64,000 bases of DNA from Parasutterella excrementihominis YIT 11859 (GTDB lineage Bacteria > Pseudomonadota > Gammaproteobacteria > Burkholderiales > Burkholderiaceae_F), in contig NZ_GL883727.1 in NCBI RefSeq assembly GCF_000205025.1, positions 1 to 64,000 of the forward strand, in the 5' to 3' direction. A program made the position numbers and the translations under genes. This document shows positions 240 through 54,378 of the stretch, one piece after another (the stretch's first letter is position 1; the number at the start of each line of letters is the position of its first letter). Below the pieces are notes generated by a model, which was given only the letters and a program-made list of their open reading frames with translations, ran no database searches and was not told where the DNA came from.

Positions 240-1115
240 ATGGCAAAGGCAATCCGACCATTGGCACCACAAGAAACTGAGAAAGTATTATCAATGCTTT
301 CAAATCTTGGTTTTCACCAATCAAAAATTACTGATAAGCAAATTGAGTTTTCAGGCGACAATTTGCCAACCATTTATTTGCACAATAAGAGAACAAAAGA
401 AGAGCCTCTTATCTGCGGTATTGTTTGTTTTAACCCTGAGCTTGACTTCGAAAGAAATCATTTAGAGGGGTTCATGCATCGGCCTTCTCAATCCGGTGAA
501 TTTAAGTCAAAGAATTCAAACTGGACTGCTTTTCCGAAGGATCTTATCAACGGAGGCGCTAATGAAGGAGTGCGAAGCGATTTTGTCTCTCCGGAGCATT
601 TGAAAAACCTTGTTCTTCAAGTCATGAGCTTGTATCGGACTGGAAAAGTAAATTCCAAAGAGAAAAACAATTCACTGTTCACCGCTAGCAATCTCAATAA
701 GAAGTCCCAACCAAAAACCATGGAAAATAAAGAACTCCATGGGGCGAACATAACTAAGTCTCCTCTAGATGACTTCCATACCGAAGCCAAAGTGCCCGAA
801 GGCAAACCTAGGACTTTTTTCACCTACCGCTACGAAAGAAGTCCTAAATTAAGAGCTGCTGTATTGAACAAATTTGGGTATAAATGCGCTGTCTGCGGAT
901 TTGATTTTGAGAAAATTTATGGGCAGCTCGGCAAAAATTTCATAGAAGTGCATCATATGATTCCTGTTTCTGAAAAGGAAAGGGAAAATGATGTAAATAA
1001 TCTTCGTCCCCTCTGCTCAAATTGCCACAGAATGATCCATAGACTTTATTCAAGTCTTGAGCCAGAGGAATATGCCGGAGCCATTGATTTGCTTAAGTTA
1101 ACGATCAACAAATAA
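240..1115 (+). CDS. HNH endonuclease (McrA-like C-terminal domain)
   Basis: A 291-residue protein that probably cuts DNA. The last third (about residues 200-275) is an HNH nuclease fold: a CAVC zinc pair, an EVHH motif carrying the catalytic histidine, an NNLRPLC segment and a CSNCH second zinc pair. The first 130 residues are not recognised and may read the DNA target or its modification; residues 140-190 look like a linker. The start is supported by AAGGAG seven bases upstream. It converges on the methyltransferase end of the restriction operon across a shared hairpin, so it is either an accessory nuclease of that island or a separate modification-dependent enzyme. The fold is clear; the substrate is not. 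Confidence 0.85.
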   Translation: MAKAIRPLAPQETEKVLSMLSNLGFHQSKITDKQIEFSGDNLPTIYLHNKRTKEEPLICGIVCFNPELDFERNHLEGFMHRPSQSGEFKSKNSNWTAFPKDLINGGANEGVRSDFVSPEHLKNLVLQVMSLYRTGKVNSKEKNNSLFTASNLNKKSQPKTMENKELHGANITKSPLDDFHTEAKVPEGKPRTFFTYRYERSPKLRAAVLNKFGYKCAVCGFDFEKIYGQLGKNFIEVHHMIPVSEKERENDVNNLRPLCSNCHRMIHRLYSSLEPEEYAGAIDLLKLTINK

Positions 1116-1130: not shown

Positions 1131-1163
1131 ATAATTTCAGGCTGTCGAAACAGCCTGAAATTT
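1131..1163. terminator. Bidirectional hairpin between convergent HNH and methyltransferase genes
   Basis: An 11-bp perfect inverted repeat (ATTTCAGGCTG and its complement, loop TCGAAA region) lies between the two convergent stop codons. There are short A/T runs on both sides, so it can end transcription from both directions. Confidence 0.7.
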
Positions 1164-2340
1164 AAAGAGATTTAGCTTCAAAAGTCCCTATCGAGGCTTC
1201 TTCACTCACATAATTGGTCCCGGCAAAAGTCTTGAGCAACGCATTAAGAATGATTGACGCTCCCTTCGGAGGGACAGCCATACCAATTTGTTTTCTTACA
1301 GATTCTTTCGAACCGATAAATTCAAAATCATCAGGAAAGGTTTGAATTCTTGCCCTCTCCCGATTAGTTAATGCTCTGGGTTCTTCCCAGTGATAAGTAT
1401 GAGTCCCGCCGCCGCCCGACCCCGTGACCGTGTAAGCAGGTTTATCAGGATCTAACCTTCTGTAAATCTGAGAGAGACGAGCACCTTTCACCTTAAGCCG
1501 CAAGTGTTCGGGCATTCTGTCTTCTGCTTGCCAAACGTTTTCTCCGGGTCTTATAAATTTAAGACGCTCCATCACGACCTTGCTTTGGTTAGTTTTTTCC
1601 TGATTAGAGGCCCAGTCAGGGATGTCTTTCAAAGCTTCTTTGACAGAAGTCACTATTCCAGGAGCTTTGGGCACCCTGAAGAAAAGTTTTTCTCCATTCT
1701 TTGGCGAGACAAGGTCCCCTCTAATACCAATGAGAATAAATCTATGTCTGGCTTGAGGAATCCCGTATTGCTCAAATTTATAGAGATGAGCCGTGACGTT
1801 ATAGCCAAACTTTCCTGCGTTGTTTAATGCTTTTAGAATGGTCTTGAATGCGTTTCCTTCATTAGCAGACCGGAGCCCAGAAACATTTTCGGCAAAAAAG
1901 AAAAGCGGATTATTGATATTTATATACTCAACACCGTATGAAAACAGCGGCCCAAAATGACCATCCAAGCCTTTACTCTCACCGACATTCGAAAAATCAT
2001 TGCAAGGGAAGCCATAAAGAAAGCCGTCTGCCTGGGGAAGTTCCTTAGCTATATCGACTTCTCTAATATCTTTGCAGATGCTGAGGGCCTCTTTATGAAT
2101 ACCTGTGAAGATATTCTTTCGATACGTCTCACATGTATCTGAATCGTAGTCTGTAGCCCACAAATGCTTGAAAGAAAGCTTTCCTCTTTTCGTTTGATTA
2201 AGAGCTAAACCAATACCGCCCGGTCCGGAGAACATCTCTCCAACTGTTAATTCTCTTGGGCCTTGGTATTGGGGAAGAGGCCTATCTAAAGGCTCTTCGG
2301 AGAACAAATCCCCCTGAAAATTGAATTCTTTCCTCGACAT
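1162..2340 (-). CDS. DNA C5-cytosine methyltransferase
   Basis: This enzyme transfers a methyl group from S-adenosylmethionine to C5 of cytosine in a specific DNA site, protecting host DNA. At 392 residues it is full length. Motif I (FSGPGG, residues 37-42) binds the cofactor, motif IV (FPC, catalytic C113) attacks the base, motif VI is ENV (151-153), and motif VIII is QARHR (196-200). A glycine-rich target-recognition stretch near residue 305 is followed by motif IX/X (NRERARIQTFPDDF, then QIGMAVPP). It is the last gene of the nine-gene operon, one base after vsr. The methylase-Vsr pairing fits repair of deaminated 5-methylcytosine. The recognition sequence cannot be read from the protein. 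Confidence 0.95.
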   Translation of the reverse strand: MSRKEFNFQGDLFSEEPLDRPLPQYQGPRELTVGEMFSGPGGIGLALNQTKRGKLSFKHLWATDYDSDTCETYRKNIFTGIHKEALSICKDIREVDIAKELPQADGFLYGFPCNDFSNVGESKGLDGHFGPLFSYGVEYININNPLFFFAENVSGLRSANEGNAFKTILKALNNAGKFGYNVTAHLYKFEQYGIPQARHRFILIGIRGDLVSPKNGEKLFFRVPKAPGIVTSVKEALKDIPDWASNQEKTNQSKVVMERLKFIRPGENVWQAEDRMPEHLRLKVKGARLSQIYRRLDPDKPAYTVTGSGGGGTHTYHWEEPRALTNRERARIQTFPDDFEFIGSKESVRKQIGMAVPPKGASIILNALLKTFAGTNYVSEEASIGTFEAKSL

Positions 2341-2341
2341 C

Positions 2342-2821
2342 TTAAGCTTCTTGACGTTGGTCCGTAGAACTATAATTCAATTCAGGTATTTCTCCAAATT
2401 GATCCGAACCTTCTAACCAAGCAGCAATCTTTAGTGGAAGTTTTTCCCTAGCCTCTTTCGTTTTCATCGAACACTCCCACACCCAAAGGACCCTCCATCC
2501 AGCCTTTAGAAGTCTTTCTTTGTTCTCATAGTCGCGGACTTTGTTCTTTGAAAGTTTTATGTGCCAATAATCTTCTCTTGATTTGGGTAAAACAGCTCGG
2601 GAACAACCGTCGTGTTGGTGCCAAAAGCATCCTTGAACAAAAATTACCGCTTTCTTTTTTGGGAGAACAATGTCAGGTTTACCGGGTAGGTCTTTTCGAT
2701 TGATTCTGTAGCGATAGCCAAGCCTAAAGAGCGCAGAGCGTATAAATACTTCTGGGCCAGTATTCTTTGACCTAATCTTTGACATGTTTAGGCTCCTGGC
2801 CTCAGAAGATTTATTGTCCAT
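2342..2821 (-). CDS. vsr: Very short patch repair (Vsr) endonuclease
   Basis: Vsr nicks DNA 5' of the T in T:G mismatches that arise when 5-methylcytosine deaminates, starting repair. The 159-residue protein has the family signature: MSKIRSKNTGPE near the N-terminus, GKPDIV with the catalytic aspartate (D50), FVQGCFWHQHDGC with zinc-ligand cysteines and active-site histidines (68-73), then RDYENKERLLKAGWRVLWVWEC. It sits one base from the C5 methyltransferase and five bases after the AIPR gene. In MORC-type restriction islands a Vsr-like enzyme has also been proposed to act as the restriction nickase, so its role here may be repair, attack or both. Confidence 0.95.
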   Translation of the reverse strand: MDNKSSEARSLNMSKIRSKNTGPEVFIRSALFRLGYRYRINRKDLPGKPDIVLPKKKAVIFVQGCFWHQHDGCSRAVLPKSREDYWHIKLSKNKVRDYENKERLLKAGWRVLWVWECSMKTKEAREKLPLKIAAWLEGSDQFGEIPELNYSSTDQRQEA

Positions 2822-2826
2822 AATTA

Positions 2827-4659
2827 CTATCGAATATAACGAGAAGTTTCAAAAGGATGATCTAAACTGATTTCTGCTCTATCAACGAGTTCTAAGCACT
2901 GATCTTTTCTGGCAAACATATTAATCATTTGGTTGCCCATGTTCCTTCTAATAATTTGATCTAACTTTTTAGCCAGCTCTGTCAAGGGGTATAGGATCTC
3001 CTCTGGTACTTCTTGGAGGCTCCATATTTCTGACCAATCTATCCGATTCCTATATTTTTTAGAAAATAAATAGATTGAGTAATTAACTATCGTACGAGGA
3101 TTTTTAAAATTGTCCTCCTTTAGTCTTCGTTCTAAAGTTGAAAATACCATCCATTTGCAAATTAATTCTTTAACCTCCTTAACATCTGGAATCCGTTCTT
3201 TTACTCCCTCATTAAACTCCAAGAAAGCTAACTGAGCTCCTTTACAAGCCGACTTGGGTTTTAAGTCCCAGCACAAAGCCGAAACGGCAAGATCAGTTTT
3301 ATCAAACATCTTTTCTTTAGGATATGTAGCCCTAAAGAGGTTCATTCCCTTCCGCTGGCCAATAAACTTTGCTTCTTCTGCCTTGTAAGATCCACGGGCT
3401 CTTTCAAAGAACCAATGATCCCCATTTGAGGTTGTAAGTTCTCGGGATATTTTTTCAAACTCCTGGTAATACTTAACTGAAGCAGATAGATCTGAGGCCT
3501 TAATTGCATTTTGTGTGTTAGCTGCGATGGGTATTTGAGCCGCAAAATCAAATCCGTTGGACTCTAGATTCGTTTTCTTTATTCTCACAATTTTTAATGG
3601 AACTTGAATCTTTGCGAAATTATCTTTAATCCTCTTTCCCTCTTCCTTTTTCTTCATTCTTTCGGCTGCTTTAAAGGTGTAGTAAAGAGTAGCTGTCGTT
3701 TGGCCTCCATTCACAATCTGAAAATTTTTTAGCTTCTTTAATTTTCCTAAGCTAGTTTCCACATCTTCCGCAACCATCACTAATCCATTGTTAAGGGCAA
3801 CGAAAGTCTCAGGCGCTTCTTTGATTGTGGATTCAATTCCTTTATTGGCTTTTTTATTTCCAAGATAGGCGCGTACATTTTTTTCTATTAATCTGGTTCC
3901 GTACGCGGAATAAATTTGAACTAGATAATTTGCTGGGATTGAGGCTAGATAGCAGTCAAATTGGCTATTATCTCCAAGGTTTAATTTAAGAACGTCTATG
4001 CCTCCCACAGGCGAAAAGTCGAGAAAACTGTGAGCTCTTTCGGCGTCAGAATCTGCAAGATAACTCAAATCCACCACACGTTGGACCAGCTCTACAGGCT
4101 GTCCCCACAACGTAATGTTAGCTCTCTGACTATATTCTTCATTAGCGAAGCGATTACTTAGAATCCATATAAAAACTGAGGAAATCTGAGCTTTATTTTT
4201 GATAATTTGGTTGCATACTTCATATGCACTTCTCTCGCGCGACAGCTGATTCTTAAAACTTTCTTCTCCCGCGTTATAAATGAAGTAGTAAGCCTCTGAG
4301 GAAAGTTTTTTTACTTCCTCCTTCGTAATCTTTTCTACTTTCACCCTTCTCTCGTAGTCGGTCACAAAAATGTGGAGATCCAACTCTCCATGACCATTTG
4401 GAAGAATCAGACAGCCGTCCATTCTCATCCTTTTATCTGACCCTGGAAACACGGCTTCAAATCGATCAATTTCGTTGAAGTAATTCAGCTCATCCTCGGA
4501 GGGTACCTGGATAACACTGTTGCTAATAAGTTTATTTAAAACCACATCGGCAAAGCATATTGACTCGAAGGCTCTTTCTGGCTCGGCATTGTCCATTCCA
4601 CAGGAAACGGCCTCATTGAGATCTTTTAAAGATTGTTCTACTTGTTCAGTTGATGCCAT
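2827..4659 (-). CDS. AIPR family protein (abortive infection phage resistance)
   Basis: A 610-residue protein of the AIPR family, which takes its name from a phage-resistance protein and recurs in restriction and other defence islands. The family signature is visible near the middle: an ALNNGLVMV block followed about 35 residues later by FQIVNGGQTTATLYY, then a stretch ending in IPIAANTQNAIKASDL. The biochemical activity is unsettled; a nuclease-like or RNA-directed function has been suggested for relatives. Its start overlaps the end of the PD-(D/E)XK gene by 14 bases, which implies coupled translation and a shared task. Confidence 0.88.
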   Translation of the reverse strand: MASTEQVEQSLKDLNEAVSCGMDNAEPERAFESICFADVVLNKLISNSVIQVPSEDELNYFNEIDRFEAVFPGSDKRMRMDGCLILPNGHGELDLHIFVTDYERRVKVEKITKEEVKKLSSEAYYFIYNAGEESFKNQLSRERSAYEVCNQIIKNKAQISSVFIWILSNRFANEEYSQRANITLWGQPVELVQRVVDLSYLADSDAERAHSFLDFSPVGGIDVLKLNLGDNSQFDCYLASIPANYLVQIYSAYGTRLIEKNVRAYLGNKKANKGIESTIKEAPETFVALNNGLVMVAEDVETSLGKLKKLKNFQIVNGGQTTATLYYTFKAAERMKKKEEGKRIKDNFAKIQVPLKIVRIKKTNLESNGFDFAAQIPIAANTQNAIKASDLSASVKYYQEFEKISRELTTSNGDHWFFERARGSYKAEEAKFIGQRKGMNLFRATYPKEKMFDKTDLAVSALCWDLKPKSACKGAQLAFLEFNEGVKERIPDVKEVKELICKWMVFSTLERRLKEDNFKNPRTIVNYSIYLFSKKYRNRIDWSEIWSLQEVPEEILYPLTELAKKLDQIIRRNMGNQMINMFARKDQCLELVDRAEISLDHPFETSRYIR

Positions 4660-5644
4660 TTAGTTCTCTTTCTCTTAACAAAAGTAAATATTCTTCCTTT
4701 GACAAAGGAGGCGTCCAAAATTCGCCGTTCTCAGTGGTCAGCGTAATTTTGTATTTCGCGCTAAGGATTCCATGAATAGATGAGGGAGTAATCCTTGGAA
4801 GCTTAGAAACATCGTAAAAGGACATACCTTTACAGACAAACTTATAAAGTTCCTCCTTCTTTTCGATTTGTCCCAATCCAGCCGACATTAATAAAGATTC
4901 AAACTCTATAACGTCAAGCTTGTTAGAGAGACGAGACTTAATCCTATCGCCAAGATCGGAAATGTTGACACCATCTTCTTGATTACTGCAAAGAACAGCG
5001 GCAAGAAAAAGATGTTCTTCCGGACCATGGTCAAACTGCAGCAATGAATCGACCGTTATTTCAAAAGGATTGTCTTTCAGAGATGTTTTTACTTCTAAGT
5101 ACTCGCTATCACTGAGTTTAAAATCGTGGCTATCTCTTAAGGGACCTGTCCAAAAATCAGTAAAGCCAGTAGACCTTTGCCCATTAGATAATAAAAATTC
5201 CAGAACTGTTAATTCTCCAAATATTCCCATTTGGGCCTTCTGATCTAGCTTCCTGCCGCGTATAGCCATAAATTTCTGCCAAGCTTTGATTCGGGAAATT
5301 AATGACTTGAATCTATTCCCGGCATTTTCTTCTTTCGTATCAAAAGAAAGCCCCAATAAATTTGCTGCCAATGAGGAAAAGATGCTCTGGTCTGAACCTG
5401 GATTTTTTAAAATTGTTAACTCTTTGCTATCCCCTTCATCTTTAAGTTCCACGGAAAAACCCAGAGAGGAGATCTCTCCCAAACGGACGTTTTTAGGGAA
5501 TTGAAAAGCCAATCCTACAATGTCATCTTTGAGCCTTATTAATTTGGTTGGATGCCGCCCTCCTTCCATAAGGACGTAACCGTCCAGAACGATTTTTTCC
5601 CATAAAGCCTCGATCAAGGAGGCGTTATAAATCTGATCTGTCAT
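4646..5644 (-). CDS. PD-(D/E)XK nuclease, DUF4420-like
   Basis: A 332-residue protein matching the PD-(D/E)XK motif family found in defence islands (DUF4420 type). The nuclease core is at residues 138-190: MGIFGELTVLEF (E144), then SHDFKL (D174) and YLEVKTS (E184, K186), the metal-binding acidic residues and lysine. The N-terminal 130 residues probably form a beta-rich domain typical of the family. It lies between the Z1 helicase (12-base gap) and AIPR (14-base overlap). Within the operon it is a good candidate for the DNA-cutting subunit driven by the helicase and the MORC ATPase. Confidence 0.85.
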   Translation of the reverse strand: MTDQIYNASLIEALWEKIVLDGYVLMEGGRHPTKLIRLKDDIVGLAFQFPKNVRLGEISSLGFSVELKDEGDSKELTILKNPGSDQSIFSSLAANLLGLSFDTKEENAGNRFKSLISRIKAWQKFMAIRGRKLDQKAQMGIFGELTVLEFLLSNGQRSTGFTDFWTGPLRDSHDFKLSDSEYLEVKTSLKDNPFEITVDSLLQFDHGPEEHLFLAAVLCSNQEDGVNISDLGDRIKSRLSNKLDVIEFESLLMSAGLGQIEKKEELYKFVCKGMSFYDVSKLPRITPSSIHGILSAKYKITLTTENGEFWTPPLSKEEYLLLLRERELNGIN

Positions 5645-5656
5645 TAAAACATCCTC

Positions 5657-8491
5657 CTAGCCTTCTGATTCAGAAATAGTACTGTTGCCAAAAGCAATGA
5701 TATTTGAAGCTTCCTCATCCTCCGGCATCCACATAAAATAAGAGACCAAAGGAATATGCCCATCGGAAGTTTGGAGGTCTTTTCTCTCTCTTATGGTTTT
5801 AGTGGTTATCAAGTAGAGCTGAAAGAAACCTTCTTGGTTTACACCGTACTTAGTGTCGCTTGCTAACTTTCTCATTCTGCGAAAGACAAGGTTCTCCTTT
5901 TGAGAGGATGCTGCGGCGGCTTGATAAAGCGCCGGGGGAACACCAACGTACTCACTCAAACCCGTCTTTAAAATTGAAAAGCGCAGTTGTTTTGCCTCAA
6001 TATCGTCTGACGAGTACTTGGCAGATTTGCTTCGGTCTACAAATTTGGACCCAGCCTCTTTCTCAGTTTTAGTAGCCAAAGATTTGGGATCTCCTGGAAC
6101 CCAAACTGTCCAATAATTAATCTTCTCTTTCTCATCCTTCTGCTTTAAATATTCAATCAGCATCTTTTGATCTTGGTCCGTATCTTCCCCCTCCGTTACC
6201 TTTGTCGCATGAAAATGATCCAGGAATTCTATGATGATGGATGTGGGGACATTCCTCCACAACCTTCCCTCGGGTCTTTTGTTTTCGTCGTATGGAACGG
6301 GGGAAGGCAAAATATTGGCTTCCTCTGCAGAAGAATAGGCTCGTTCCCCAAATTCTTCTATGTTGGAAAGAAGGGTTTTGGCGGCAATCCAGTTGTTTTG
6401 AAAAACGTCGTAGTTCAAATCAAAAGAACTTTTGTAAGACACCGGCTTAATTGGCCCCTTGGTAACAACTCTGGCGCTGAGCATTTTGTTTCTTGCTGTT
6501 ATTCTTAACCCAGGGTGTGCTCGAACTTTCAGGCCGAAGGTCTCCGGGGTGAGATCATGGGAGTTCATCTCATCAATCTGCGCCGTAAAATCTAAAATGG
6601 CGTCTGTGATGCTGATATAACGATCAATTACTTCCAAAGGAGCATACAATCGGCATAAGTCAAGATAGCCGTCTCGATAACCGAACCACCTGCCCATCTG
6701 CATCAGCGTGTCATACATAATGGAACCGCGGAGAAAGACGCTCACACACAATCCAGGAAGTGTTAGTCCGCGAGAAAGTTTATTCCCGCCTATGAAGAGA
6801 ACTGCTTTAGGAACCTCTGAAAAAGTTTCTTCGGGGTCAAGATTTTCTTCTTTTCCTTTGCTGCTTTCCCCGTTTACCACTCGAATCTCGATATTAGCGG
6901 CAACTTTTCGAATATCTTCAATGATTTCGTCTAGAGAATCAGGCAAGCTCCAGTCACCTACTGTATCAACATCGTGCCTCTTTTCTTTAACTCTTGGAGT
7001 GATTTCATTTTTCTGCAGTTCGAAAAGCTGTGCAAGAGTGTCAAGGGAGTCATTACCAAAGATCGAACCGTTCAAATCCGCTGAAATTTCTTCTAGTACC
7101 GCACTAACTTTTTGCCTTTGGTCTTTATGATCTGCAATTAAATGAGAAACATGGAAAAGCATTGAGGATTCGAAACGTTCCTTTTGGGAGCCTGAAAGGT
7201 AATCGCCTCTTGTTTTAAATCGTCTCCACTTAATAGCAGTAGAAAGAATAAATTGCAGAATCGCTTTTTTTAGCGTCTTTGAAATGAATTTTTTATCTTT
7301 TGTGAATTGCTTTGCTTCGGAAGGTTCAAAAATCTCGTACAGCCCTAAACCTTCTTCATTTTCAGTTCCAAAGAGTTCTTTTGGTCCAACATAATTGGCG
7401 GGAGAAGCTAAGCGGACAATAAAATCTTTAGGGTATAGGTCTTTGGAATACTCGTCGTTGTCCGCTTTTGAATCAATGAATACATTAGCGAAGGGAGTCG
7501 CTGTATATCCTATGAAAGCCGAACGCCTAAAAAGTTTTAGGATCTTGCGAATAAATCGATTAGTTGCTGTAGCTTCGTCAACAGCACTCGTGTTAATAGA
7601 AGCTAAGTCCGCCTCGTCATCGATTACAAGAATTGGTCTATCAGAGTGATCCGTCAGCCATTTTTCCAACTTACCTAAAACCGTCGTATTTTTCTTTACG
7701 ACAAAGAGCCAAGGAAGCTCTTCTGCCGTTATGGGCGTCCCCTTAAAATCATCATCTAAGGTAGTCGCTGATTTCGGTTTTCTTTCATCCGAGTAATCCG
7801 GTAGAGTGCCCACACCGACAGGGTCGGAATCAAATTTGCCGCCTTCTAATGTCCGATTATGAAATCCTGTAAAAGCTTGATCTAACCGTATTTGTGTTTG
7901 TTGTCTAAGGTCATTATGAATGCCGGACAGGACCACAATAATTTTGTAACCTGCATCTGCTGCCTTACACGCTAAGGCACAATAATTAGCTGTTTTTCCA
8001 CTCTGGATTGAACCCAGGACAAGGCCGCGGATGTCCCAATCCTCTTCATCTTTTGGATCGTGAAGAACTTCCAAAATTCTTTCACTTTCGTCGTCAAGTT
8101 TCTCAACAATACTCAAATTACCCCACTGTTGAAGCAACTCACGATACAGCGGCCAGTAATATCTTTCTGAGATTCTTTGTTTACTAAGCCAATTAGTACA
8201 GCGTTTCGGAACTATAACATCAGCTTTGGGTACGATTGCATAGTTACCCAAACCTGCAATGATGGCTTGCTTTTGTTCTTTTATATATTTACGCACCAAG
8301 TCTTCATTCATCAAGCCTTTTAGCAAATGGGTGTCGGAAAGTTCATCTAATTTTTTCGTAACCATTTCAATTATTTCTACAATGGAAACTGAATGGCCCT
8401 GTCCCTTTAAGCTCTGTAACTCTATCTCGCAATCGCGCTCTACGCTGCCCAAAAGCATAGAAATTAGTCGTTCCGAAGAAATCCCTGTCAT
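5657..8491 (-). CDS. Z1 domain superfamily II helicase/ATPase
   Basis: A 944-residue motor protein. Helicase motif I (Walker A) is GSIQSGKT (160-167), motif II is DDEAD (291-295), and motif III is GYTATPFA (328-335). The Z1 domain follows: LFIGGNKLSRGLTLPGL near residue 560, then a QMGRWFGYRDGY block holding the arginine finger. Z1 proteins are known as the helicase component of MORC-type restriction-modification islands, where they are thought to translocate on DNA. Its ATG overlaps the MORC stop codon (ATGA), so the two are translationally coupled. All motor motifs look intact. Confidence 0.93.
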   Translation of the reverse strand: MTGISSERLISMLLGSVERDCEIELQSLKGQGHSVSIVEIIEMVTKKLDELSDTHLLKGLMNEDLVRKYIKEQKQAIIAGLGNYAIVPKADVIVPKRCTNWLSKQRISERYYWPLYRELLQQWGNLSIVEKLDDESERILEVLHDPKDEEDWDIRGLVLGSIQSGKTANYCALACKAADAGYKIIVVLSGIHNDLRQQTQIRLDQAFTGFHNRTLEGGKFDSDPVGVGTLPDYSDERKPKSATTLDDDFKGTPITAEELPWLFVVKKNTTVLGKLEKWLTDHSDRPILVIDDEADLASINTSAVDEATATNRFIRKILKLFRRSAFIGYTATPFANVFIDSKADNDEYSKDLYPKDFIVRLASPANYVGPKELFGTENEEGLGLYEIFEPSEAKQFTKDKKFISKTLKKAILQFILSTAIKWRRFKTRGDYLSGSQKERFESSMLFHVSHLIADHKDQRQKVSAVLEEISADLNGSIFGNDSLDTLAQLFELQKNEITPRVKEKRHDVDTVGDWSLPDSLDEIIEDIRKVAANIEIRVVNGESSKGKEENLDPEETFSEVPKAVLFIGGNKLSRGLTLPGLCVSVFLRGSIMYDTLMQMGRWFGYRDGYLDLCRLYAPLEVIDRYISITDAILDFTAQIDEMNSHDLTPETFGLKVRAHPGLRITARNKMLSARVVTKGPIKPVSYKSSFDLNYDVFQNNWIAAKTLLSNIEEFGERAYSSAEEANILPSPVPYDENKRPEGRLWRNVPTSIIIEFLDHFHATKVTEGEDTDQDQKMLIEYLKQKDEKEKINYWTVWVPGDPKSLATKTEKEAGSKFVDRSKSAKYSSDDIEAKQLRFSILKTGLSEYVGVPPALYQAAAASSQKENLVFRRMRKLASDTKYGVNQEGFFQLYLITTKTIRERKDLQTSDGHIPLVSYFMWMPEDEEASNIIAFGNSTISESEG

Positions 8492-9897
8492 TTTTCTATT
8501 TCCTTGAGTATTTGTTTGACTTCGTAGGGGTATAAGTTAAATGGAGGTAATTTAAGAATATTGACCGCCTCTTCCTGAAACCTTTCTTCTTTTTTGATTT
8601 CTCCAACCGCAGAATGAAGCGCAAGCAATTCATTTTCAGAAAGTTCTTTCCTCGCTCTTTTTAAATTGGAAGGCGAACATCTGGCAATTAAGTCTAAGAA
8701 ACCTTCCGTTACCTCCTTAGAAACTCCCTTCGAACAAAGCTCCATAAAAATGATCAGAAACGGCTGAGAAAAATCTAGACTTTCAGCTTTTCCCCTTTGT
8801 TTAAGCCAAATTCCAGAAGTTTTACCGCTCACACTTCTCGATATGTCATAAAGTTCCTCTGCCTCTTCCCTTGCCGCACGGAGATAAGGTTCAATCCATT
8901 TCTTTACTTCTATTGGAGGTATGGCGTTCTTCTTACGGATATCCAGTCTCCAGCCGCCATCAACTTCACCAGTAAAATCAATTTTCGTTCGAATCAGAGA
9001 TGTTTCCTTAGATTTCGGCATGTTCTTTAAGCCTAGCCAACCCCCGTAACTGATAAGCCGCTTGGAACGATATATGTAAACCCCCTGCATGTTATAAATT
9101 TCTTCCTCGGTAAGACTTGAATCTACCTTCAGCATTTCTGGAGAAAGAAGAAAAGTTTCTGCGGTAACTTTCGGCTGCTCAGGCATTGGCGGCCACGCAA
9201 TTTTTGGGCTCCGTCTGATTAGAGCCATGCTGTCGGGATTAAATGGGTTTAAGGACTCTAGCCTTTGCCCCTGAAACCAAATGTTCGTATCGCCGTCTTC
9301 TAGGAATCTATGAAAGATTAAACGAAGGTGCCTTCTAAGGGACATAAAGGAGGCATTGAAGGATTCCTTATCTTTCCCCCTCAAAGCTTTTACTTCAGGC
9401 CAATAAACTAAGGTTCCGCTTTTTAAACTTTGTTCTTCTGATCGAAACCTCATTTCGGGGAGACAATTTGAATGTTCAATTAATTCCCATCTGTCTTTTT
9501 TTCTCACTAAATCCAGATTCCATTCAAAACAGGAAGCTTCCTGATCACTTTTAGACCTTACAACCAAGCGATCACTTTGAGATAAAGAAGCCGTTTTCAA
9601 GCCTAGACCAAATTGCCCCAAATCAGATATTTTTCTTGTTTGCCGAGGATCAAAAGAACCAAATCTCATTGCCCTCAATAGTTCAAGCCGCTTCATTCCG
9701 CATCCATCGTCTTCAATTTTGAGAAAGACTTCTTTTGACTCATGAAGCGCAAAATCCACGTAAATATTTTTAGCTCCCGCCGCAATGCTGTTATCGAGAA
9801 TGTCAGCCACCGCGCTGTTGAGATCATAGCCAATCGAACAGAGGGACGTTATGAGATTCGAGGGACTAGGCGGAGTCTCAAAGGTTTTATCTTCCAT
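8488..9897 (-). CDS. MORC/MutL-type GHKL ATPase
   Basis: A 469-residue protein with an N-terminal GHKL (Hsp90/MutL/histidine-kinase-like) ATPase. The N-box is ADILDNSIAAGA (31-42), motif II is DDGCGM (63-68), motif III is GQFGLGLK (94-101), and a TLVYW strand follows near 175. The middle resembles the S5-like transducer of MutL/MORC proteins; the rest is helical. Such ATPases act as ATP-gated clamps. They are the defining component of the MORC restriction systems from which eukaryotic MORC proteins are proposed to derive. The start codon directly follows the stop of the small reading frame upstream, and its own stop overlaps the Z1 start. Confidence 0.92.
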   Translation of the reverse strand: MEDKTFETPPSPSNLITSLCSIGYDLNSAVADILDNSIAAGAKNIYVDFALHESKEVFLKIEDDGCGMKRLELLRAMRFGSFDPRQTRKISDLGQFGLGLKTASLSQSDRLVVRSKSDQEASCFEWNLDLVRKKDRWELIEHSNCLPEMRFRSEEQSLKSGTLVYWPEVKALRGKDKESFNASFMSLRRHLRLIFHRFLEDGDTNIWFQGQRLESLNPFNPDSMALIRRSPKIAWPPMPEQPKVTAETFLLSPEMLKVDSSLTEEEIYNMQGVYIYRSKRLISYGGWLGLKNMPKSKETSLIRTKIDFTGEVDGGWRLDIRKKNAIPPIEVKKWIEPYLRAAREEAEELYDISRSVSGKTSGIWLKQRGKAESLDFSQPFLIIFMELCSKGVSKEVTEGFLDLIARCSPSNLKRARKELSENELLALHSAVGEIKKEERFQEEAVNILKLPPFNLYPYEVKQILKEIEK

Positions 9898-10056
9898 TTA
9901 CCGCTCCGTACGACTGAAATATTCAGCCATGATTTCATAAAGAAGCTTTCCTCTTTCGACCAGAAGATGACCAAATCTTCTTTCCAGGTCTTCTTCTGAT
10001 TCTTCATGACTTCTCCAGGCTAAAAATAGTTCTTTTGCTTCCTGAGTAATTGGCAT
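9898..10056 (-). other. 52-codon frame: small ORF or -1 frameshift tail of the proline-rich protein
   Basis: This frame encodes 52 residues from an ATG at 10056 (starting MPITQEAKELF, ending SRTER) and stops immediately before the MORC ATG. The frame is open further upstream to about 10092. It overlaps the end of the 399-residue proline-rich gene in the -1 frame, just past a run of seven A (mRNA sense). A one-base slip back in that run would join the two frames and give a product of about 440 residues. The tail is highly charged and predicted helical. It may be a separate small gene, the true C-terminus of its neighbour after a one-base deletion, or a frameshifted extension. Confidence 0.55.
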
Positions 10057-11219
10057 ATCTGAAATAGCTGATTCAAATGATTTTTTTCTCCTTCAATCGG
10101 CGTAAGTATCCCTTCAGTACCAAAAGGGGACGCGGGCAATGGAGGGGGACAGGAAATAACTTCCGGCCCCGGGGATCCAGCCTCCCCTTTTGGCTCTTCC
10201 CCTTCACCAAAAGGAACCTTCACACCCTCCGTACCAAATGGCGAAGGCGGTATTTTGGGGGTTCCTTGGACAACAGGTACTTCAGTAGGGCCTATTTCAT
10301 CTCCGGTGTTTTTCTTTCCTTTTTCAGGATTTCCATTGCCTGTTTCACCGAAAGGTGATTCTGGTATCGGTGGAAGCACTGGTATTATTTCCGGTTCTGG
10401 CGATTTATTCTTTCCAGCCGGAACGCTTTTTCCTTGTCTTTTTGTTTCAGGCAGCTCGCCTGTTGGCTCTTCGCCTCCATTTTTGTCGTTTCCGCCGCTT
10501 AGCTCTTGGAGGTATTTATTTGTTTCAATCCCGCCCCTAGACCTAAGGAAACTTGCCATTTCCTCTCTTTCTGCGAATAAGGAAAGATCTACGAGGTTAT
10601 ACCCTAACGACCCAGTGAATTCATTCCAATCTGGGTTCTCTTTAATGAAGTAATCTATAGAAGAAATGTTACCGATCCCTACCGCACCCTGAATAACAGC
10701 AGGGAGTGTTCCACCAAAAACCTCACGTTTTTGATAATACTTTTTGACGATTGGCTTAACGTCAAAACACAGAGATTCAAGATCTGCCCTGGACAGCGGG
10801 ACATATACCCCATAACGCAGCATTAACTCAATGGATTTTAATTTTTTCTTTTCAAGAGCCCATAAAAACAAGTCCTGCACTTTAAAATTCAAAAAAGACG
10901 CTCGGAGACTGAAAACTCTTGGATCACTGAACAACTTCTTAAGTCTCTCAGTGTCCTCTTTCAGTACGAGCCTTTGTGCAACTTGAAAACTAATATTGTA
11001 AATTTCTGGAAATAAAATCTGCTGAAACCAAGGTTCGAGAATATCCTTGTGCCGAGAATGCTCAACAAATTGAGCTAATGTCAGAAGAAAAGATTCGTTC
11101 TCTTCTCGAACTTGAAATAACTCTTTGTTTCTATGAATGAATGGGATGATTTCATCAAAATCTGCATTTGCGATCCAGGCATTGAGATCTACAGATGGGA
11201 ATTTGTTTTCTGTTAACAC
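10020..11219 (-). CDS. Unrecognised helical (ankyrin-like) protein with proline-rich repeat tail
   Basis: A 399-residue protein with no clear family. Residues 1-240 are alpha-helical with spacing and phrases (IELMLRYGVYVPL, SIDYFIKENPDW) resembling degenerate ankyrin repeats. Residues 240-380 are low in complexity, rich in Pro, Gly and Glu, and hold three spaced copies of a motif close to PPxPxSPFGTEG. Such tails often bind partner proteins. It sits between the AlwI-like enzyme (6-base gap) and the MORC ATPase, so it may be an adaptor linking the nuclease to the MORC core. The last 20 residues may be an artefact of a frameshift at the A run; see the overlapping frame at 9898-10056. Confidence 0.7.
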   Translation of the reverse strand: MLTENKFPSVDLNAWIANADFDEIIPFIHRNKELFQVREENESFLLTLAQFVEHSRHKDILEPWFQQILFPEIYNISFQVAQRLVLKEDTERLKKLFSDPRVFSLRASFLNFKVQDLFLWALEKKKLKSIELMLRYGVYVPLSRADLESLCFDVKPIVKKYYQKREVFGGTLPAVIQGAVGIGNISSIDYFIKENPDWNEFTGSLGYNLVDLSLFAEREEMASFLRSRGGIETNKYLQELSGGNDKNGGEEPTGELPETKRQGKSVPAGKNKSPEPEIIPVLPPIPESPFGETGNGNPEKGKKNTGDEIGPTEVPVVQGTPKIPPSPFGTEGVKVPFGEGEEPKGEAGSPGPEVISCPPPLPASPFGTEGILTPIEGEKNHLNQLFQICQLLRKQKNYF

Positions 11220-11225
11220 AATAAA

Positions 11226-12884
11226 CTAGCCCCTCAGATCCAACTCATTTTCTATCTGGCTGCATGAAACAAAATAATCTCCTGTTTCAAATACTTTGCT
11301 TAATTCGTGGGCAAGCTCCCTATCGCCAATTTTCAAAAATCCGTCTTCTCTTCTTTCATTCAAATCAAGCAATGCATTGACCGTCACAGCCGAAACCGGC
11401 CGTCCAAATTTTTCGGTGCAGTCTTTCAGTGAAGATAAAACTGACTCCGTACCGCGGCTAAAACCACCGGCAACGTAAAGAAAGAAACCACAAGGATGAA
11501 CGTTGTCTATCTCTTCTGAACAATCCTTGTAGTAAGTTTGAAGCTTGTTCTTATCGGTTAAACCAAAGCTATAGGAAGAGGTTGCCTTAGTATCGCCTAA
11601 GCCGCAAACCGTCATCCCATCCTCGTAGATGTAAATATCTGGGAAGCCTCCATCACGTTTTTTCTTTGACTTCAACTGACCAATGTGGCGGGACTGTTTA
11701 AATCCCAAATTTTTGAGGATATTGGTAACGCCTTTTTCAAGCGTAAGAGCTTCTTTTCCTCCAGACAGGGAGGCTCTTATGAGAACATCACGTTCGAGCG
11801 TCCTTTGACGAGGAATTATTGATTCAATCCGAGAGTAGATGTCTTGCTCAGGTTTTCCTAAATTCCCGGCTAAGCCTTTTACAAAATTCTGGATGTCTAC
11901 GCCGTAGGGATCTTTCTCCATCGCCGATATGAACAGATTCCTCGCCATTACAGCCAGACCATCGAGTTTTTCCGATTCGCCTACGTTCTGAACTCCTCGT
12001 TTGCTGTCGTACCTGCCGTAAAACTGCTGCCACCTGCTCTCGTCGCCGGAAACAAGAGGATAAATTTTTTGTTCATTTAGATAAGGCTGAATCTCTTTCC
12101 GAAGCTTAGAATCCTCGATTAGAGAAAAAGTTTTATCTTCGTCCTCATTAGGTTTTATTAATAGAGCTGCACGAAGATAGTTAACTGCCGTATTCGCAAT
12201 TTCAAACGCATCCACTATGCCAAGCTCAAGATCGCGTTTATCTCCATCTAGCAAGTCAGAATGATCCCTTTTTGGAGTTCTTACAAGGTCAGGATCGGTA
12301 ATGACAGAAGAAAGGTCATTGTCGTTAGACCTAAGTTCAATAATTTTTGATACGCACAATTCAAAATCTGAATCTGTATGTCCAAAGACCACGGGCACAG
12401 TAATGTCTTTGCAGGAAAGTTTGTATCCGAGCCGCTCTTCGTTCAGTAATCTAAGTAGAAACTGAAAAGGTTTAATTTTTAAAGTCGGAGAAATTCGTAC
12501 ATTATTTCCTAAGCCATAAACGGATGGATACTGCATTCTGAGAAGTTGACAGCGAAGGACTTTTAGCGGATTTTTTCCGGCGATTACTGACTTACCCGCC
12601 TTTGTTGGATAAAATTTTTTATCTTTTCTCCAAAAAAGACCGAGGCAGGCAAGCTGAGCAAGGTAAGTTCGAAAGCCGCCTTGATTTGTAGATCCGTCTT
12701 CGTTTTCTTTTCTTTTGACGCCTAATTCACTCAGCTGTTTATAGAGTTCATCCTGAACATCCTGAGACTGAACATCGCCAATGCATACTTCCAGCGCACT
12801 TGAAATCTGTGTTAGTTTCCAAGGTTCGATTCTTCGAATATTTCTAGGAAACATCCACATTGTTCTAAATTTTTTAGATTCCAT
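11226..12884 (-). CDS. Type II restriction endonuclease, AlwI-like
   Basis: A 552-residue protein resembling the AlwI family of type II enzymes (AlwI reads GGATC). The N-terminal half has winged-helix-like DNA-reading segments and a PTLKIKPFQFLLRLL stretch like AlwI relatives. The nuclease core is near the C-terminus: FPDIYIY (P415, D416) and GDTK (D431, K433), a PD-(D/E)XK site with strong spacing. It is the second gene of the operon, two bases after the HNH gene. The only methyltransferase nearby is a C5-cytosine enzyme, so host protection would have to come from that or from elsewhere. The family assignment is moderate; the nuclease core is convincing. Confidence 0.72.
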   Translation of the reverse strand: MESKKFRTMWMFPRNIRRIEPWKLTQISSALEVCIGDVQSQDVQDELYKQLSELGVKRKENEDGSTNQGGFRTYLAQLACLGLFWRKDKKFYPTKAGKSVIAGKNPLKVLRCQLLRMQYPSVYGLGNNVRISPTLKIKPFQFLLRLLNEERLGYKLSCKDITVPVVFGHTDSDFELCVSKIIELRSNDNDLSSVITDPDLVRTPKRDHSDLLDGDKRDLELGIVDAFEIANTAVNYLRAALLIKPNEDEDKTFSLIEDSKLRKEIQPYLNEQKIYPLVSGDESRWQQFYGRYDSKRGVQNVGESEKLDGLAVMARNLFISAMEKDPYGVDIQNFVKGLAGNLGKPEQDIYSRIESIIPRQRTLERDVLIRASLSGGKEALTLEKGVTNILKNLGFKQSRHIGQLKSKKKRDGGFPDIYIYEDGMTVCGLGDTKATSSYSFGLTDKNKLQTYYKDCSEEIDNVHPCGFFLYVAGGFSRGTESVLSSLKDCTEKFGRPVSAVTVNALLDLNERREDGFLKIGDRELAHELSKVFETGDYFVSCSQIENELDLRG

Positions 12885-12886
12885 AG

Positions 12887-13699
12887 TTAAAAACCAACAT
12901 CAAATTTTCCGGCTCGAAATTCCTGATAATGAAGAGACAAAAATTCTTTGTTTATCGGAGTCCTTGTATCTAAATCTATCTTTATCCCTTCCAACGGCTC
13001 CAAAAAATTATCCCAAAATTCTGTTGACCGTTGCTTTAAACTTTCTGCAAACTCAACTGTCCCGTCAGGAGAAATTCCCATAAAGTTCTTGTCATAAGCC
13101 TCATGGAAGAAAGGATTTAAGGCAATACCGTTCCCTATCGTAAGTCTGTCAGCTTCACCGGCTGACCAAGAAACAATATGTGCCGCTTCCAATAACTCAG
13201 GTGTCCTGCAGTGAGAAATAAGACAAGTATTTCCACAATTTGCTAGCACGGCGTTGCGAAAATATCCTTGTCCGACTCGTCGCTTCACTATTGAAACAGC
13301 CTCAGTCTTTCTGATTTCCGGAAGGATATCTACACCAAGTATGACTTCTAAGGCATGACTTTTATCAACAGGAGAACAAACGGCACCAAAAATTGATTGA
13401 ACGGCATCCGATAGTTTTTCCAAATCCACACTTCCCGAATCAGGGTCTAGGAATCGCTCCATAACCTCGGTGTCGGTTCGACTTCCGTGAGAAAAGCCTC
13501 TAGGCCCTTCTCCTGCGTTCCTGTCGATGGCCCTAAAATTTGCAAGCTTAAATGCTATGGCAGAAGAACTCCTTCCAATGTAGGCGCTTGCATCTTTCAG
13601 CATTGGATTAGTTCCGGATATTTTTGTGGCAGGAACACGATAATAAAGAGCCAGCGCAAGTGTGAGCTCCCTCTCATTCCAATTTGAATTCCTGCTCAT
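12887..13699 (-). CDS. HNH endonuclease, first gene of the restriction operon
   Basis: A 270-residue protein. The N-terminal 80 residues carry a helix-turn-helix-like segment (GRSSSAIAFKLANF), probably DNA binding. The HNH nuclease lies at about residues 165-225: CGNTCLISHC, AAHIVSWS with the key histidine, then NGIALNPFFHEAYDKNFMGI. This arrangement is common among HNH enzymes next to restriction-modification genes. It opens the operon, with GAGG eight bases before the ATG, and is followed two bases later by the AlwI-like gene. It could be a target-cutting enzyme or one restricting modified DNA. Confidence 0.85.
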   Translation of the reverse strand: MSRNSNWNERELTLALALYYRVPATKISGTNPMLKDASAYIGRSSSAIAFKLANFRAIDRNAGEGPRGFSHGSRTDTEVMERFLDPDSGSVDLEKLSDAVQSIFGAVCSPVDKSHALEVILGVDILPEIRKTEAVSIVKRRVGQGYFRNAVLANCGNTCLISHCRTPELLEAAHIVSWSAGEADRLTIGNGIALNPFFHEAYDKNFMGISPDGTVEFAESLKQRSTEFWDNFLEPLEGIKIDLDTRTPINKEFLSLHYQEFRAGKFDVGF

Positions 13700-13975: not shown

Positions 13976-14380
13976 ATGAAAACTATTGAAGTTGTTGCTG
14001 CCATTATTCATCACGATGGAAAGATCCTCGCTACACAGCGAGGATATGGTGACTTTAAAGACGGATGGGAGTTCCCGGGCGGAAAGATGGAAGCCGGAGA
14101 AACAGCCGAACATGCAATTGTTCGCGAAATCGAGGAAGAGCTCAATGTAGAAATTCGACCCGAAAAGCTTCTTCATACTGTTGAATACGACTATCCGAAC
14201 TTCCACTTGACGATGCACTGCTTTATCTCGGTCATTACTAAAGGAACCATCGAGCTGATTGAGCACGAAGACGCAAAATGGTTAAAACCGGATGAGTTGG
14301 ATTCCATTGCTTGGCTTCCGGCTGACGTGGAAGTTGTCGAAAAGCTCAAAATCTATCTAAAAGAAAAAAACGAACTCTAA
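13976..14380 (+). CDS. mutT: Nudix hydrolase, 8-oxo-dGTP diphosphatase (MutT)
   Basis: MutT hydrolyses oxidised nucleoside triphosphates such as 8-oxo-dGTP to monophosphates, so that they are not built into DNA. The Nudix box is complete: it starts GGKMEAGET and ends REIEEEL, with the metal-binding glutamates. The protein is 134 residues from the ATG at 13976, the usual MutT size. An earlier in-frame ATG at 13898 would add 26 residues that fit no Nudix domain, so the inner start is chosen. It is a lone gene, convergent with the HAD phosphatase, and marks the right edge of the defence island. Confidence 0.9.
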   Translation: MKTIEVVAAIIHHDGKILATQRGYGDFKDGWEFPGGKMEAGETAEHAIVREIEEELNVEIRPEKLLHTVEYDYPNFHLTMHCFISVITKGTIELIEHEDAKWLKPDELDSIAWLPADVEVVEKLKIYLKEKNEL

Positions 14381-49310: not shown

Positions 49311-50590
49311 TTACTCGGGTTCATAAACTAGGATGTCTATCAATGCCAACCTTGAGTTCCAAATTTGACGCTCTTTCGTTTGAGCCTTAGGTGGCTTTGA
49401 GTTATACCATTCCGTGGAGTAAAAGAGTCGCAATAATTTTTGGTAGTTTTTAACTGTTGGATAATCACCTTTTAATTTCCCAAGTAAGTTTAGTTTCCTT
49501 ACTGATCCTCCGTTGTAAGAAAATGCTAAATCTGGCCTGGTTATTGCTAAAAACCTTGAAGCAGAAGCCACTCCAATTTCTGGAAGAGAGTCCAACTCTT
49601 TTAGGAAACTTATAACCACATCTGCTTTTTCATCCACACTTAATCCGTCCACATTAACTTCTTTAAAGCTTTTAAGAATTTTAATTATTTTCTTTCGTTC
49701 TTCTAGGTTTCTATCCTTCACCAGGACAGAGCACAATCCTCCCCGAGCCTGAAGGGAACCCAAGAATTTGTACGGGAAAACATTCCCTGCCAATACATTG
49801 CCGTATACAGGCTTCCATCTCCGGCTCGATAGCAACTCAGCAGTCAAACTGAAAAGATTGGACCACGGATCATTGCGAGGATCCCCAAGAATGGTTTCTC
49901 TAGAAAAATTATTAAAATTTGGCGCGGCTTTTTGAAGACTATCTTTATACTTTTTCCAGTCCGTTAGATATTTTCTTTCCATCAGCCAATTACCAACGTC
50001 CTCCATATCGGTTGAATCCGGGTCTCGACCATCGTTCACCAGTTTATTACCTGCAAATTGAGCGCCAAGTCGGTCCCTCTCCTCTAGCGTTATCTCGTGA
50101 GAATTTTTCCAAGTTTCTTCAAACCAATTAACCAATTTTTCATTCTTTCCTTTCAACTCGACAAGAAGTTCTTTATTTTGTAAAAGTCCTGCCTTTGTAA
50201 AATTCATACTTCCGATGAGAACTCTAGTCCCACCCACTTCGTCATAAAAAAATATAGTTTTGGATGAAAGATTTTTTCATATAATTCTGCATTTGGGATT
50301 TTTATTTCAAAGCATCCTTTATATTCTTTCCATTCCCTTTTCCCAAGTTCAAAAATCTCTGGATCCGTCCCTCCGAAATTTATTCCCGATATGATCCTTA
50401 AAAAAACACCGTTAATCGAAGGACGTAACTCTTCCATTCTTATTCCTATCTTATCCAATACATCAGATTTCGTTACCCATGCGGAACAAATATCTATCTT
50501 TTTAGAGGATGAAATTAATTTTTCAATTCGCCCTTGTATGTTTTCAATCAAAGATAATTCGACTTGTTCAAGATTTTTTAAATCCTTCAT
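49311..50590 (-). pseudogene. Phospholipase-D-type nuclease, split by a frameshift
   Basis: Two frames, 50590-50204 and 50237-49311, together encode about 426 residues. The first has an AAGGAG ribosome site and ends with the PLD half-motif HPKLYFF (H109, K111). The rest of that motif, GTRVLIGSMNFTKAGLLQNKE with the Ser/Asn part, is in the other frame. The break is at a run of seven T; eight T would restore YFFYDEVGGTRV. One HxK motif per chain suggests a dimeric PLD nuclease, followed by a helical C-terminal region with no recognised family. It is the last gene of the unknown five-gene unit. The alternatives are a true null mutation, a sequencing error, or ribosomal/transcriptional slippage. 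Confidence 0.75.
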
Positions 50591-50632
50591 TTAATACTCC
50601 TTGATTTGGGAATCCAGATTTTTATTAAAAAA

Positions 50633-51433: not shown

Positions 51434-51450
51434 AAGATAATTACCCCTCA

Positions 51451-52239: not shown

Positions 52240-52349
52240 TTTTAATCCAATCTATATTTTATTGTTTCGTCCGTAGAAGAATTTGATTGAAAAAGAGCTA
52301 GATTTATTCCGTCAGTAACAACAATTACTAGGCCTATTATCTTCTTTGC

Positions 52350-53138: not shown

Positions 53139-53157
53139 AGTTCTCTTGCCTAGCTTA

Positions 53158-54375: not shown

Positions 54376-54378
54376 CAC

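What the first reader, a model, noticed from the sequence alone, without database searches (positions are those of the whole stretch)
1162..13699. Extended MORC/Z1 restriction-modification island with methylase, Vsr, AIPR and PD-(D/E)XK plus three extra leading genes
Methylase, Vsr, MORC ATPase and Z1 helicase are an established genomic association in the MORC restriction-modification literature. Here they are translationally coupled (overlaps of 4 and 14 bases, gaps of 1-12) to an HNH nuclease, an AlwI-like enzyme and a proline-rich protein. The unit holds up to four nucleases and two ATPases, and the mechanism of such systems is not settled.
Basis: partly seen in the sequence, partly recalled or inferred. 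Interest (0 to 1): 0.75.

Follow-up and report, generated by a model that had tools for sequence, protein, structure and literature searches.

The report
Restriction system wrapped around MORC–Z1 core
A bacterium carries one gene cluster that joins a DNA-cutting restriction system to a separate, energy-driven defence machine, and relatives show that the methyl-marking enzyme is exchanged between different machines, which makes it a good place to ask whether two machines can share one 'self' mark.

Summary
The nine genes at 1162-13699 are real and mostly tightly coupled. MORC, Z1, DUF4420 PD-(D/E)XK and AIPR form a known block (Iyer 2008 MORC/Z1 operons; 'Type II' of PMC9523054; distant mzaBCDE relative). 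The 'three extra leading genes' are not one block. (1) The AlwI/BspD6I-like enzyme is the likely cognate nuclease of the C5-methylase and Vsr at the far end: that methylase is 47-65% identical to methylases beside AlwI-family nucleases in Bacilli plasmids, a Lentisphaerae MAG and a Duodenibacillus MAG, but mostly 24-40%, often in pieces, to other MORC-core methylases. So an RM system is split around the core. (2) The proline-rich gene sits where mzaA (ankyrin + sigma-70) sits elsewhere and probably changes frame at an A7 run, which explains an overlooked 122-nt gap. (3) The HNH gene is a loose accessory. The unit lies between mutT and an HNH gene; a sister species has a type IV restriction gene there. 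The methylase's wider subfamily serves AlwI-like, CglI/NgoAVII-like and MORC machines. Bold reading: one mark, two cutters. Against it: no core protein tracks the methylase type. New variant of a known kind.

The parts
12887..13699 (-). HNH_2 nuclease (270 aa), first gene; accessory
   Evidence: PF13391 E 5.1e-7; PDLC04132 E 1.6e-43; relatives in 20 of 299 phylum genomes, own included, few of them beside a MORC/Z1 core
11226..12884 (-). AlwI/BspD6I-like restriction nuclease (552 aa)
   Evidence: PDLC03504 E 6.8e-18; tblastn to plasmid genes annotated AlwI family; three-row profile matches N.BspD6I E 9e-9 over residues 47-200; Foldseek N.BspD6I 5.8e-10, FokI 2.4e-6, BpuJI recognition domain 7e-5 on a model of mean pLDDT 63.5; PD...DTK motif at 415
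10020..11219 (-). Proline-rich protein in the mzaA slot (399 aa, GTG start); N-part predicted helical
   Evidence: no Pfam, PADLOC or NCBIfam hit
9898..10087 (-). A7 run (first A at 10087) and the -1 frame continuing to a TAA that abuts the MORC ATG; possible frameshift, phase-variable tract or mutation
8488..9897 (-). MORC / GHKL ATPase (MzaB-like, 469 aa)
   Evidence: PF13589 7.2e-27; NF041932 208.9 bits against a cut-off of 850; eukaryotic MORC4 structure 7k7t E 7.6e-6
5657..8491 (-). Z1 SF2 helicase-like ATPase (MzaC-like, 944 aa)
   Evidence: PF10593 2.7e-58; NF041933 478.8 bits against 1500; DEAD at 292 and DTLMQMGRWFG at 594
4646..5644 (-). DUF4420 PD-(D/E)XK protein (MzaD-like, 332 aa)
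   Evidence: PF14390 4.8e-43; NF041934 133.7 bits against 420
2827..4659 (-). AIPR protein (MzaE-like, 610 aa)
   Evidence: PF10592 6.7e-60; NF041935 243.9 bits against 1050
2342..2821 (-). Vsr mismatch endonuclease (159 aa)
   Evidence: TIGR00632 143.8 bits against a cut-off of 97.85
1162..2340 (-). C5-cytosine DNA methylase (392 aa) of the AlwI-linked subfamily
   Evidence: PF00145 3.5e-72; identities and tree
240..1115 (+). Flanking HNH gene, convergent; probably outside the unit
   Evidence: PF01844 1.1e-12; relative (46% over 204 aligned residues) also beyond the restriction gene in sister species G347
13976..14380 (+). mutT/NUDIX gene, right flank
   Evidence: PF00293 1.3e-20; 79% identical gene borders another restriction gene in G347

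Best explanation
A composite restriction island, probably one transcription unit. Module A is a type II, probably type IIS, RM system: AlwI/BspD6I-like nuclease, C5-methylase, and Vsr to repair deaminated 5mC. Module B is the MORC-Z1-DUF4420-AIPR core with a mzaA-slot protein in front, nested between the nuclease and the Vsr/methylase. The HNH nuclease is an accessory. Shown by sequence comparison: the anatomy, the kinship of the methylase with AlwI-linked methylases, the inheritance of the core as a block, and the flanks. Inferred: the methylase marks host sites (guess: GCNGC class); the AlwI-like enzyme cuts unmarked sites; the MORC and Z1 ATPases drive a DUF4420-dependent attack on foreign DNA, with Z1 acting as in CglI/NgoAVII, where a Z1 ATPase is switched on by a nuclease bound to an unmethylated site. 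That module B reads the same mark is the least certain step.
For: Methylase 47-65% identical to AlwI-linked methylases, mostly 24-40% to other MORC-core ones. AlwI + this methylase without a core in 7 loci from Bacilli plasmids and a Lentisphaerae MAG, one with a broken AlwI gene. Same gene set in Duodenibacillus G316 in another order. 15 of 27 plasmid records with the methylase also hold an AlwI-family gene. AlwI-like fold match to BspD6I, FokI and BpuJI. Core order MORC-Z1-DUF4420-AIPR kept. Some C5-methylase in 28 of 30 and Vsr in 23 of 30 long-Z1 loci. All four core proteins have the same nearest relative, L045. The interval between mutT and the HNH gene holds a different restriction gene in G347.
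Against: No core protein groups the islands that share the methylase type, so nothing shows that the core reads this mark. Window AlwI is only 21-24% identical to the Bacilli AlwI-family proteins over full length, and no Pfam model of that family was hit at E 0.1. The Duodenibacillus island also has a PLD-B3 nuclease gene that could be the methylase's partner. Promoters, transcripts and activities are untested. The possible frame break in the proline-rich gene may mean partial decay.
Confidence: 0.6

Rival explanations
1. Two independent defence systems share a hotspot and an operon by accident. Methylase and Vsr protect only against the AlwI-like enzyme; the MORC core senses something other than methylation (for example phage replication or DNA topology) and has no methylase of its own here.
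For: Core inherited as a block while methylase types change around it; the interval is occupied by a different restriction gene in G347.
Against: Some C5-methylase accompanies 28 of 30 long-Z1 loci; the window's methylase subfamily also stands directly with MORC cores that lack AlwI (L045, L067).
Confidence: 0.3
2. The MORC core is an abortive backup: it kills or arrests the cell when the AlwI-like nuclease fails or has cut, rather than acting as a restriction machine.
For: AIPR was named after abortive infection (figure legend of PMC2292703); the window's AIPR matches PADLOC AbiU weakly (E 2e-26 over 175 residues).
Against: Name and weak homology only; no toxin domain seen; DUF4420 and Z1 suggest DNA cutting.
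Confidence: 0.2
3. The locus is decaying: the proline-rich gene is broken by an indel at the A7 run and the core may be poorly expressed.
For: The apparent frame changes at the A7 run.
Against: The other eight ORFs are intact with tight junctions, and most catalytic motifs searched were found; my Walker-A and GHKL G-box patterns found nothing, though GSIQSGKT and GQFGLGLK can be read by eye. The downstream frame keeps coding composition.
Confidence: 0.12

Closest known systems
MORC / Z1-type helicase RM operons (Iyer, Abhiman, Aravind 2008, PMC2292703)
   Same: MORC ATPase, SFII helicase with DThhQXuRhFG motif, RE-fold protein, Vsr, C5-methylase, AIPR.
   Different: The parts read (1-2 of 4; figures not held) do not mention an AlwI-like nuclease or the proline-rich protein here.
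'Type II' putative defence system of Miller et al. 2022 (PMC9523054)
   Same: Z1 + PD-(D/E)XK + C5-methylase + AIPR, associated with MORC; described as resembling mzaABCDE.
   Different: The section read does not mention an AlwI-like or HNH nuclease. Function there is also predicted only.
MZA (mzaABCDE; Gao 2020, not held, seen through PMC9523054 and NCBIfam/PADLOC models)
   Same: Gene order and families B-C-D-E.
   Different: All four proteins far below NCBIfam equivalog cut-offs; no sigma-70 MzaA; a methylase, Vsr and type II nuclease in the unit.
AlwI-family C5 RM cassettes of Bacilli plasmids (e.g. Geobacillus pJS1-2, Exiguobacterium pEspB)
   Same: AlwI-type nuclease + related C5-methylase (53-57%), Vsr in two of the first three read.
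   Different: No MORC core; they have a 158-187-aa ORF before the nuclease that the window lacks; nuclease only 21-24% identical.
CglI / NgoAVII (PMC4267653: abstract, passages, one section; PMC5737866: abstract)
   Same: Z1 ATPase beside a C5-methylase with a similar target domain.
   Different: No PLD R-protein among the ten window ORFs tested; long Z1 protein with MORC instead of a short one.

Membership tests
Iyer 2008 MORC/Z1 operon (third type) | SFII helicase with DThhQXuRhFG motif | tested here: met
   DTLMQMGRWFG at 594 of Z1
Iyer 2008 MORC/Z1 operon (third type) | MORC-specific GhXhhpXXRhl motif in the S5 domain | tested here: met
   GVYIYRSKRLI read by eye in the MORC ORF; motif from PMC2292703
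Iyer 2008 MORC/Z1 operon (third type) | Companion RE-fold protein with E-D-ExK | tested here: inconclusive
   DUF4420 4.8e-43; EVK at 184 among other [DE]xK; fold not modelled
Miller 2022 'Type II' | Z1 + PD-(D/E)XK + C5-methylase + AIPR, with MORC | tested here: met
   definition
MZA (mzaABCDE) | MzaB, C, D, E at NCBIfam equivalog level | tested here: not met
   208.9/850, 478.8/1500, 133.7/420, 243.9/1050 bits/cut-off
MZA (mzaABCDE) | MzaA sigma factor before MzaB | tested here: not met
   no sigma-70 hit for the proline-rich ORF (N-part again)
MZA (mzaABCDE) | Anti-phage activity | not testable with these tools
   no assay
AlwI/BspD6I-type nuclease family | Sequence and fold similarity with a PD-(D/E)XK site | tested here: met
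   low identity (21-24%), model pLDDT 63.5
AlwI/BspD6I-type nuclease family | Type IIS cutting at a fixed distance | not testable with these tools
   no assay
CglI/NgoAVII | PLD-B3 R-protein beside a short Z1 protein | tested here: not met
   no PLD hit among the ten window ORFs
CglI/NgoAVII | Methylase target GCSGC | tested here: inconclusive
   target-domain residues shared with the gonococcal NgoAVII-type methylase at 37-39% overall; BceSIV of this kind reads GCWGC

The most novel reading that the evidence does not exclude
One C5-methyl mark licenses two mechanistically different cutters in one operon: a stand-alone type IIS enzyme and an ATP-driven MORC-Z1-DUF4420-AIPR machine. The methylase/Vsr pair is an exchangeable specificity cassette that has been fitted to AlwI-like, CglI-like and MORC machines, so the MORC core has no fixed sequence of its own and borrows it.
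Probability: 0.28. Interest if true: 0.72.

Novelty: new variant of a known kind. Interest (0 to 1): 0.5.

Why it matters
How MORC-Z1 systems tell self from non-self is open as far as I could see. Here one methylase subfamily sits with a simple nuclease, with a biochemically known Z1 enzyme type (CglI/NgoAVII) and with MORC cores. That gives a target motif to test and natural swaps (window, L045, L047, L067, L080) for asking whether the MORC core reads the methylase's mark. It also shows a four-gene core that is inherited as a block while its methylase and nuclease change.

Tried and rejected
Three leading genes as one extra module: rejected; they occur apart elsewhere. Depletion of candidate motifs in the window: none clear (observed/expected 0.83-1.16), uninformative. 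A core protein that tracks methylase type: none of four. Ankyrin fold of the proline-rich protein: not shown. hhalign gave nothing significant for the window protein against L045 (E 0.45) or eight MzaA-slot proteins (E 0.82); L045 against those gave E 0.025. The single-sequence model was poor (pLDDT 55.7) and Foldseek gave no match at E 0.001. RNA structure after the A7 run: -7.0 kcal/mol, no shuffle control. The first genome-contig scan, with MORC, found nothing; the second, with AlwI, gave 2 loci, one of them apparently the contig already seen as G316:C10 (same length, 69,025). Viral contigs: no AlwI relative from 17 pattern matches. Re-joining of RM module and core as separate events in Duodenibacillus: suggested, not proven. 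Not done: a search of the phage collection.
Full report
WHAT IS THERE. Nine minus-strand genes run from 13699 down to 1162: HNH, AlwI-like nuclease, proline-rich protein, MORC, Z1, DUF4420, AIPR, Vsr, C5-methylase. Seven of eight junctions are within -14 to +12 bases; the eighth, before MORC, is 122 bases. The window begins at the first base of contig C54 of the source genome, so what lies left of it is unknown.

CORE. Pfam, PADLOC and NCBIfam name MORC, Z1, DUF4420 and AIPR as MzaB-, C-, D- and E-like, far below NCBIfam's equivalog cut-offs. MORC relatives occur in 19 of 299 sampled phylum genomes, own included. Of the 18 other loci fetched, 14 have a Z1 beside the MORC gene; of the other four, one contig ends in the MORC gene and three show a MORC hit only. 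In 30 loci with a long Z1 (at least 200 bits; window not counted) the window's proteins find MORC in 27, DUF4420 in 24, AIPR in 23 and Vsr in 23, and four methylase queries find some C5-methylase in 28 (E 1e-4). Some misses are divergent genes or contig ends. With more queries all four core proteins were found in all 22 other loci put into; loci with missing genes had been left out of that call. The 30 loci are 14 from the MORC search, 4 from a Z1 search of 67 family genomes, 11 of the 12 plasmid loci fetched out of 50 records with a Z1 match (the twelfth, L066, has a broken Z1 and fell below the threshold), and L119, fetched by an HNH search.

The core was described by Iyer et al. 2008 (PMC2292703, parts 1-2 of 4 read) and again as 'Type II' in PMC9523054 (passages and one section read). 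Gao 2020 was not held. Eight paper searches were answered; the rows shown held no mechanism paper on MZA or on MORC/Z1/AIPR systems. Some lists were capped, and most subscription journals are not in that library.

THE AlwI-LIKE GENE GOES WITH THE METHYLASE AND Vsr. On Exiguobacterium, Geobacillus and Planococcus plasmids AlwI-family genes stand near a C5-methylase, with Vsr in two of the three. Those methylases are 53-57% identical to the window's. Other MORC-core methylases align mostly at 24-40%, often in two pieces; the exceptions, L045 (63%), L047 (65%), L059 (52%) and L067 (47%), carry the window's type. A Lentisphaerae MAG has AlwI (33%) and this methylase (47%) without a core within about 10 kb. 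In Duodenibacillus (G316, same family; named through L054) the order is AlwI (42%), a PLD-B3 gene on the other strand, methylase (65%), Vsr (59%), then MORC-Z1-DUF4420-AIPR. 15 of 27 plasmid records with the methylase (E up to 1e-70) also carry an AlwI-family gene (matched by accession). The window's AlwI subfamily is rare: found in 1 of 299 phylum genomes (own only, E 1e-6) and 2 of 67 family genomes (E 1e-4). Both of the latter stand in a MORC-core island, but the own case is how the question arose, so only one is independent. Identity of the window's AlwI to the Bacilli proteins is low (21-24%).

The wider methylase subfamily also serves CglI/NgoAVII-type systems. Of 18 loci with a hit of at least 200 bits (window not counted): 7 AlwI without Z1 (one, L077, in pieces), 6 PLD + short Z1 (two of these, L081 and L082, only 213-216 bits, about 37%), 2 MORC core without AlwI (L045, L067), 2 AlwI + long Z1 (L047, L059), 1 with no partner found by my queries (L075). 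These loci were picked by hits, not at random. L059 (Priestia) has Z1 and DUF4420 but no MORC or AIPR that I could find. Target-domain residues are shared with the gonococcal methylase of a methylase-PLD-Z1 locus, which I take as NgoAVII-type from its gene content. M.NgoAVII and M.CglI methylate GCSGC (PMC4267653, passages); BceSIV of the same kind reads GCWGC. Hence the guess of a GCNGC-class target.

THE PROLINE-RICH GENE. Some islands carry an ankyrin + sigma-70 protein just before MORC: eight were listed, three of them tested and confirmed by Pfam, the rest read by eye. One of these three, L049, also matches PADLOC MzaA (5.7e-58). The window and L045 have instead, in the same slot, a protein with a long charged or proline-rich stretch and no sigma-70 hit. 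Homology to MzaA is not shown: the window protein has no Pfam hit, L045's ankyrin match is weak (E 0.026), hhalign is non-significant, and the model is poor. At GAGAAAAAAATC the frame appears to change: the following bases have coding composition only in the -1 frame, which ends in TAA abutting the MORC ATG. A programmed -1 shift, a phase-variable run, a mutation or an assembly error would all fit. Four other A7 runs lie in the operon, so the run by itself is not special.

HNH GENE. Relatives are in 20 of 299 genomes, own included. Of 17 fetched out of 19 others, one adjoins Z1-DUF4420-AIPR and a MORC remnant (L119), one a Vsr and a C5-methylase (L103), one a C5-methylase (L116), and 14 showed none of my query genes; some contigs are short. 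I treat it as an accessory.

HISTORY. In the Z1 tree the window joins L045 (SH-aLRT 100, quick method) and L047 falls in the other half. In the methylase tree window, L047 and L045 form one clade (99/100), with L047 + L045 inside it weakly (88/77). Window + L047 as Z1 sisters is rejected (p 0.006); the three together are not (p 0.096). Both groups were named after seeing the trees, and several branches are long, with a long-branch warning for window + L045 too. For each of the four core proteins the window's nearest relative is L045, and none gathers the four islands (window, L045, L047, L067) that share the methylase type. So the core seems to move as a block, with the methylase/nuclease part exchanged around it. 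In the same family L046 and L048 pair the core with an HpaII-type nuclease and its own methylase, and L045 has an EcoRII-type nuclease nearby.

PLACE. The unit lies between mutT (13976-14380) and an HNH gene (240-1115). In sister species G347 the same mutT (79%) abuts a DUF3427/PLD/helicase gene that PADLOC calls type IV methyl-directed (1.7e-186), followed about 0.6 kb on by a relative of that HNH gene (46% over 204 aligned residues). The third genome of the genus, G348, has no such mutT match. In G307 (L048) a mutT relative (62%) also borders a MORC-core island. Island GC is 41.5% against 46% for 14.5-64 kb, but 12.5-kb stretches of the rest range from 40.9 to 48.3%, so GC is not decisive.

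HOW IT MOST LIKELY WORKS. The methylase marks host sites, Vsr repairs T:G mismatches from deaminated 5mC, and the AlwI-like enzyme cuts unmarked sites without ATP (from family knowledge). The Z1 ATPase, by analogy with CglI (ATP-driven, triggered by site binding of its partner; PMC4267653 passages, PMC5737866 abstract), and the MORC ATPase drive DUF4420-dependent damage of foreign DNA. The role of AIPR is unknown. Whether this arm reads the same mark is the open question: the C5-methylase found in 28 of 30 long-Z1 loci speaks for it, the lack of a co-varying core protein against it.

VERDICT. Known core, known RM kind, new interleaved combination with recurring methylase exchange: a new variant, interest 0.5.

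Noticed in passing
window 13976-14380 and 240-1115; L126 (G347); L048 (G307): A mutT-linked site holds different restriction cassettes in relatives: RM + MORC core here, a type IV methyl-directed gene in G347, an HpaII-type + MORC island beside mutT in G307. A 5mC-dependent nuclease and a 5mC-making RM system would be incompatible, which may favour swapping (inference).
   Followed up: partly
L047:10618-11781 (Duodenibacillus): An NgoFVII-type PLD-B3 nuclease gene lies between AlwI and the methylase, with no short Z1 protein found in the stretch; it might use the MORC-linked long Z1 as its ATPase.
   Followed up: no
L050:15421-16590, L061:14573-15775, L021:9382-10296: Some MORC-core islands with a C5-methylase also carry AspBHI-type or Mrr-type nucleases, families known (recalled) for cutting modified DNA: an odd pairing with a methylase.
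   Followed up: no
L051:6436-6999, L052:5532-6008, L053:5364-5882, L059:12920-13429: A 158-187-aa ORF of no Pfam family (L059 copy tested) precedes AlwI-family genes in Bacilli; the window lacks it. It could be a second subunit or a regulator.
   Followed up: no
L077:6784-8860 (Bacillus carboniphilus plasmid): An AlwI-family gene in three pieces beside an intact methylase.
   Followed up: no
window about 46-47 kb and 50-53 kb: Low-GC stretches (28.5% and 34-36%) with ORFs at 49311-54378, the first with PLD-like text, not annotated here; perhaps another acquired cluster.
   Followed up: no
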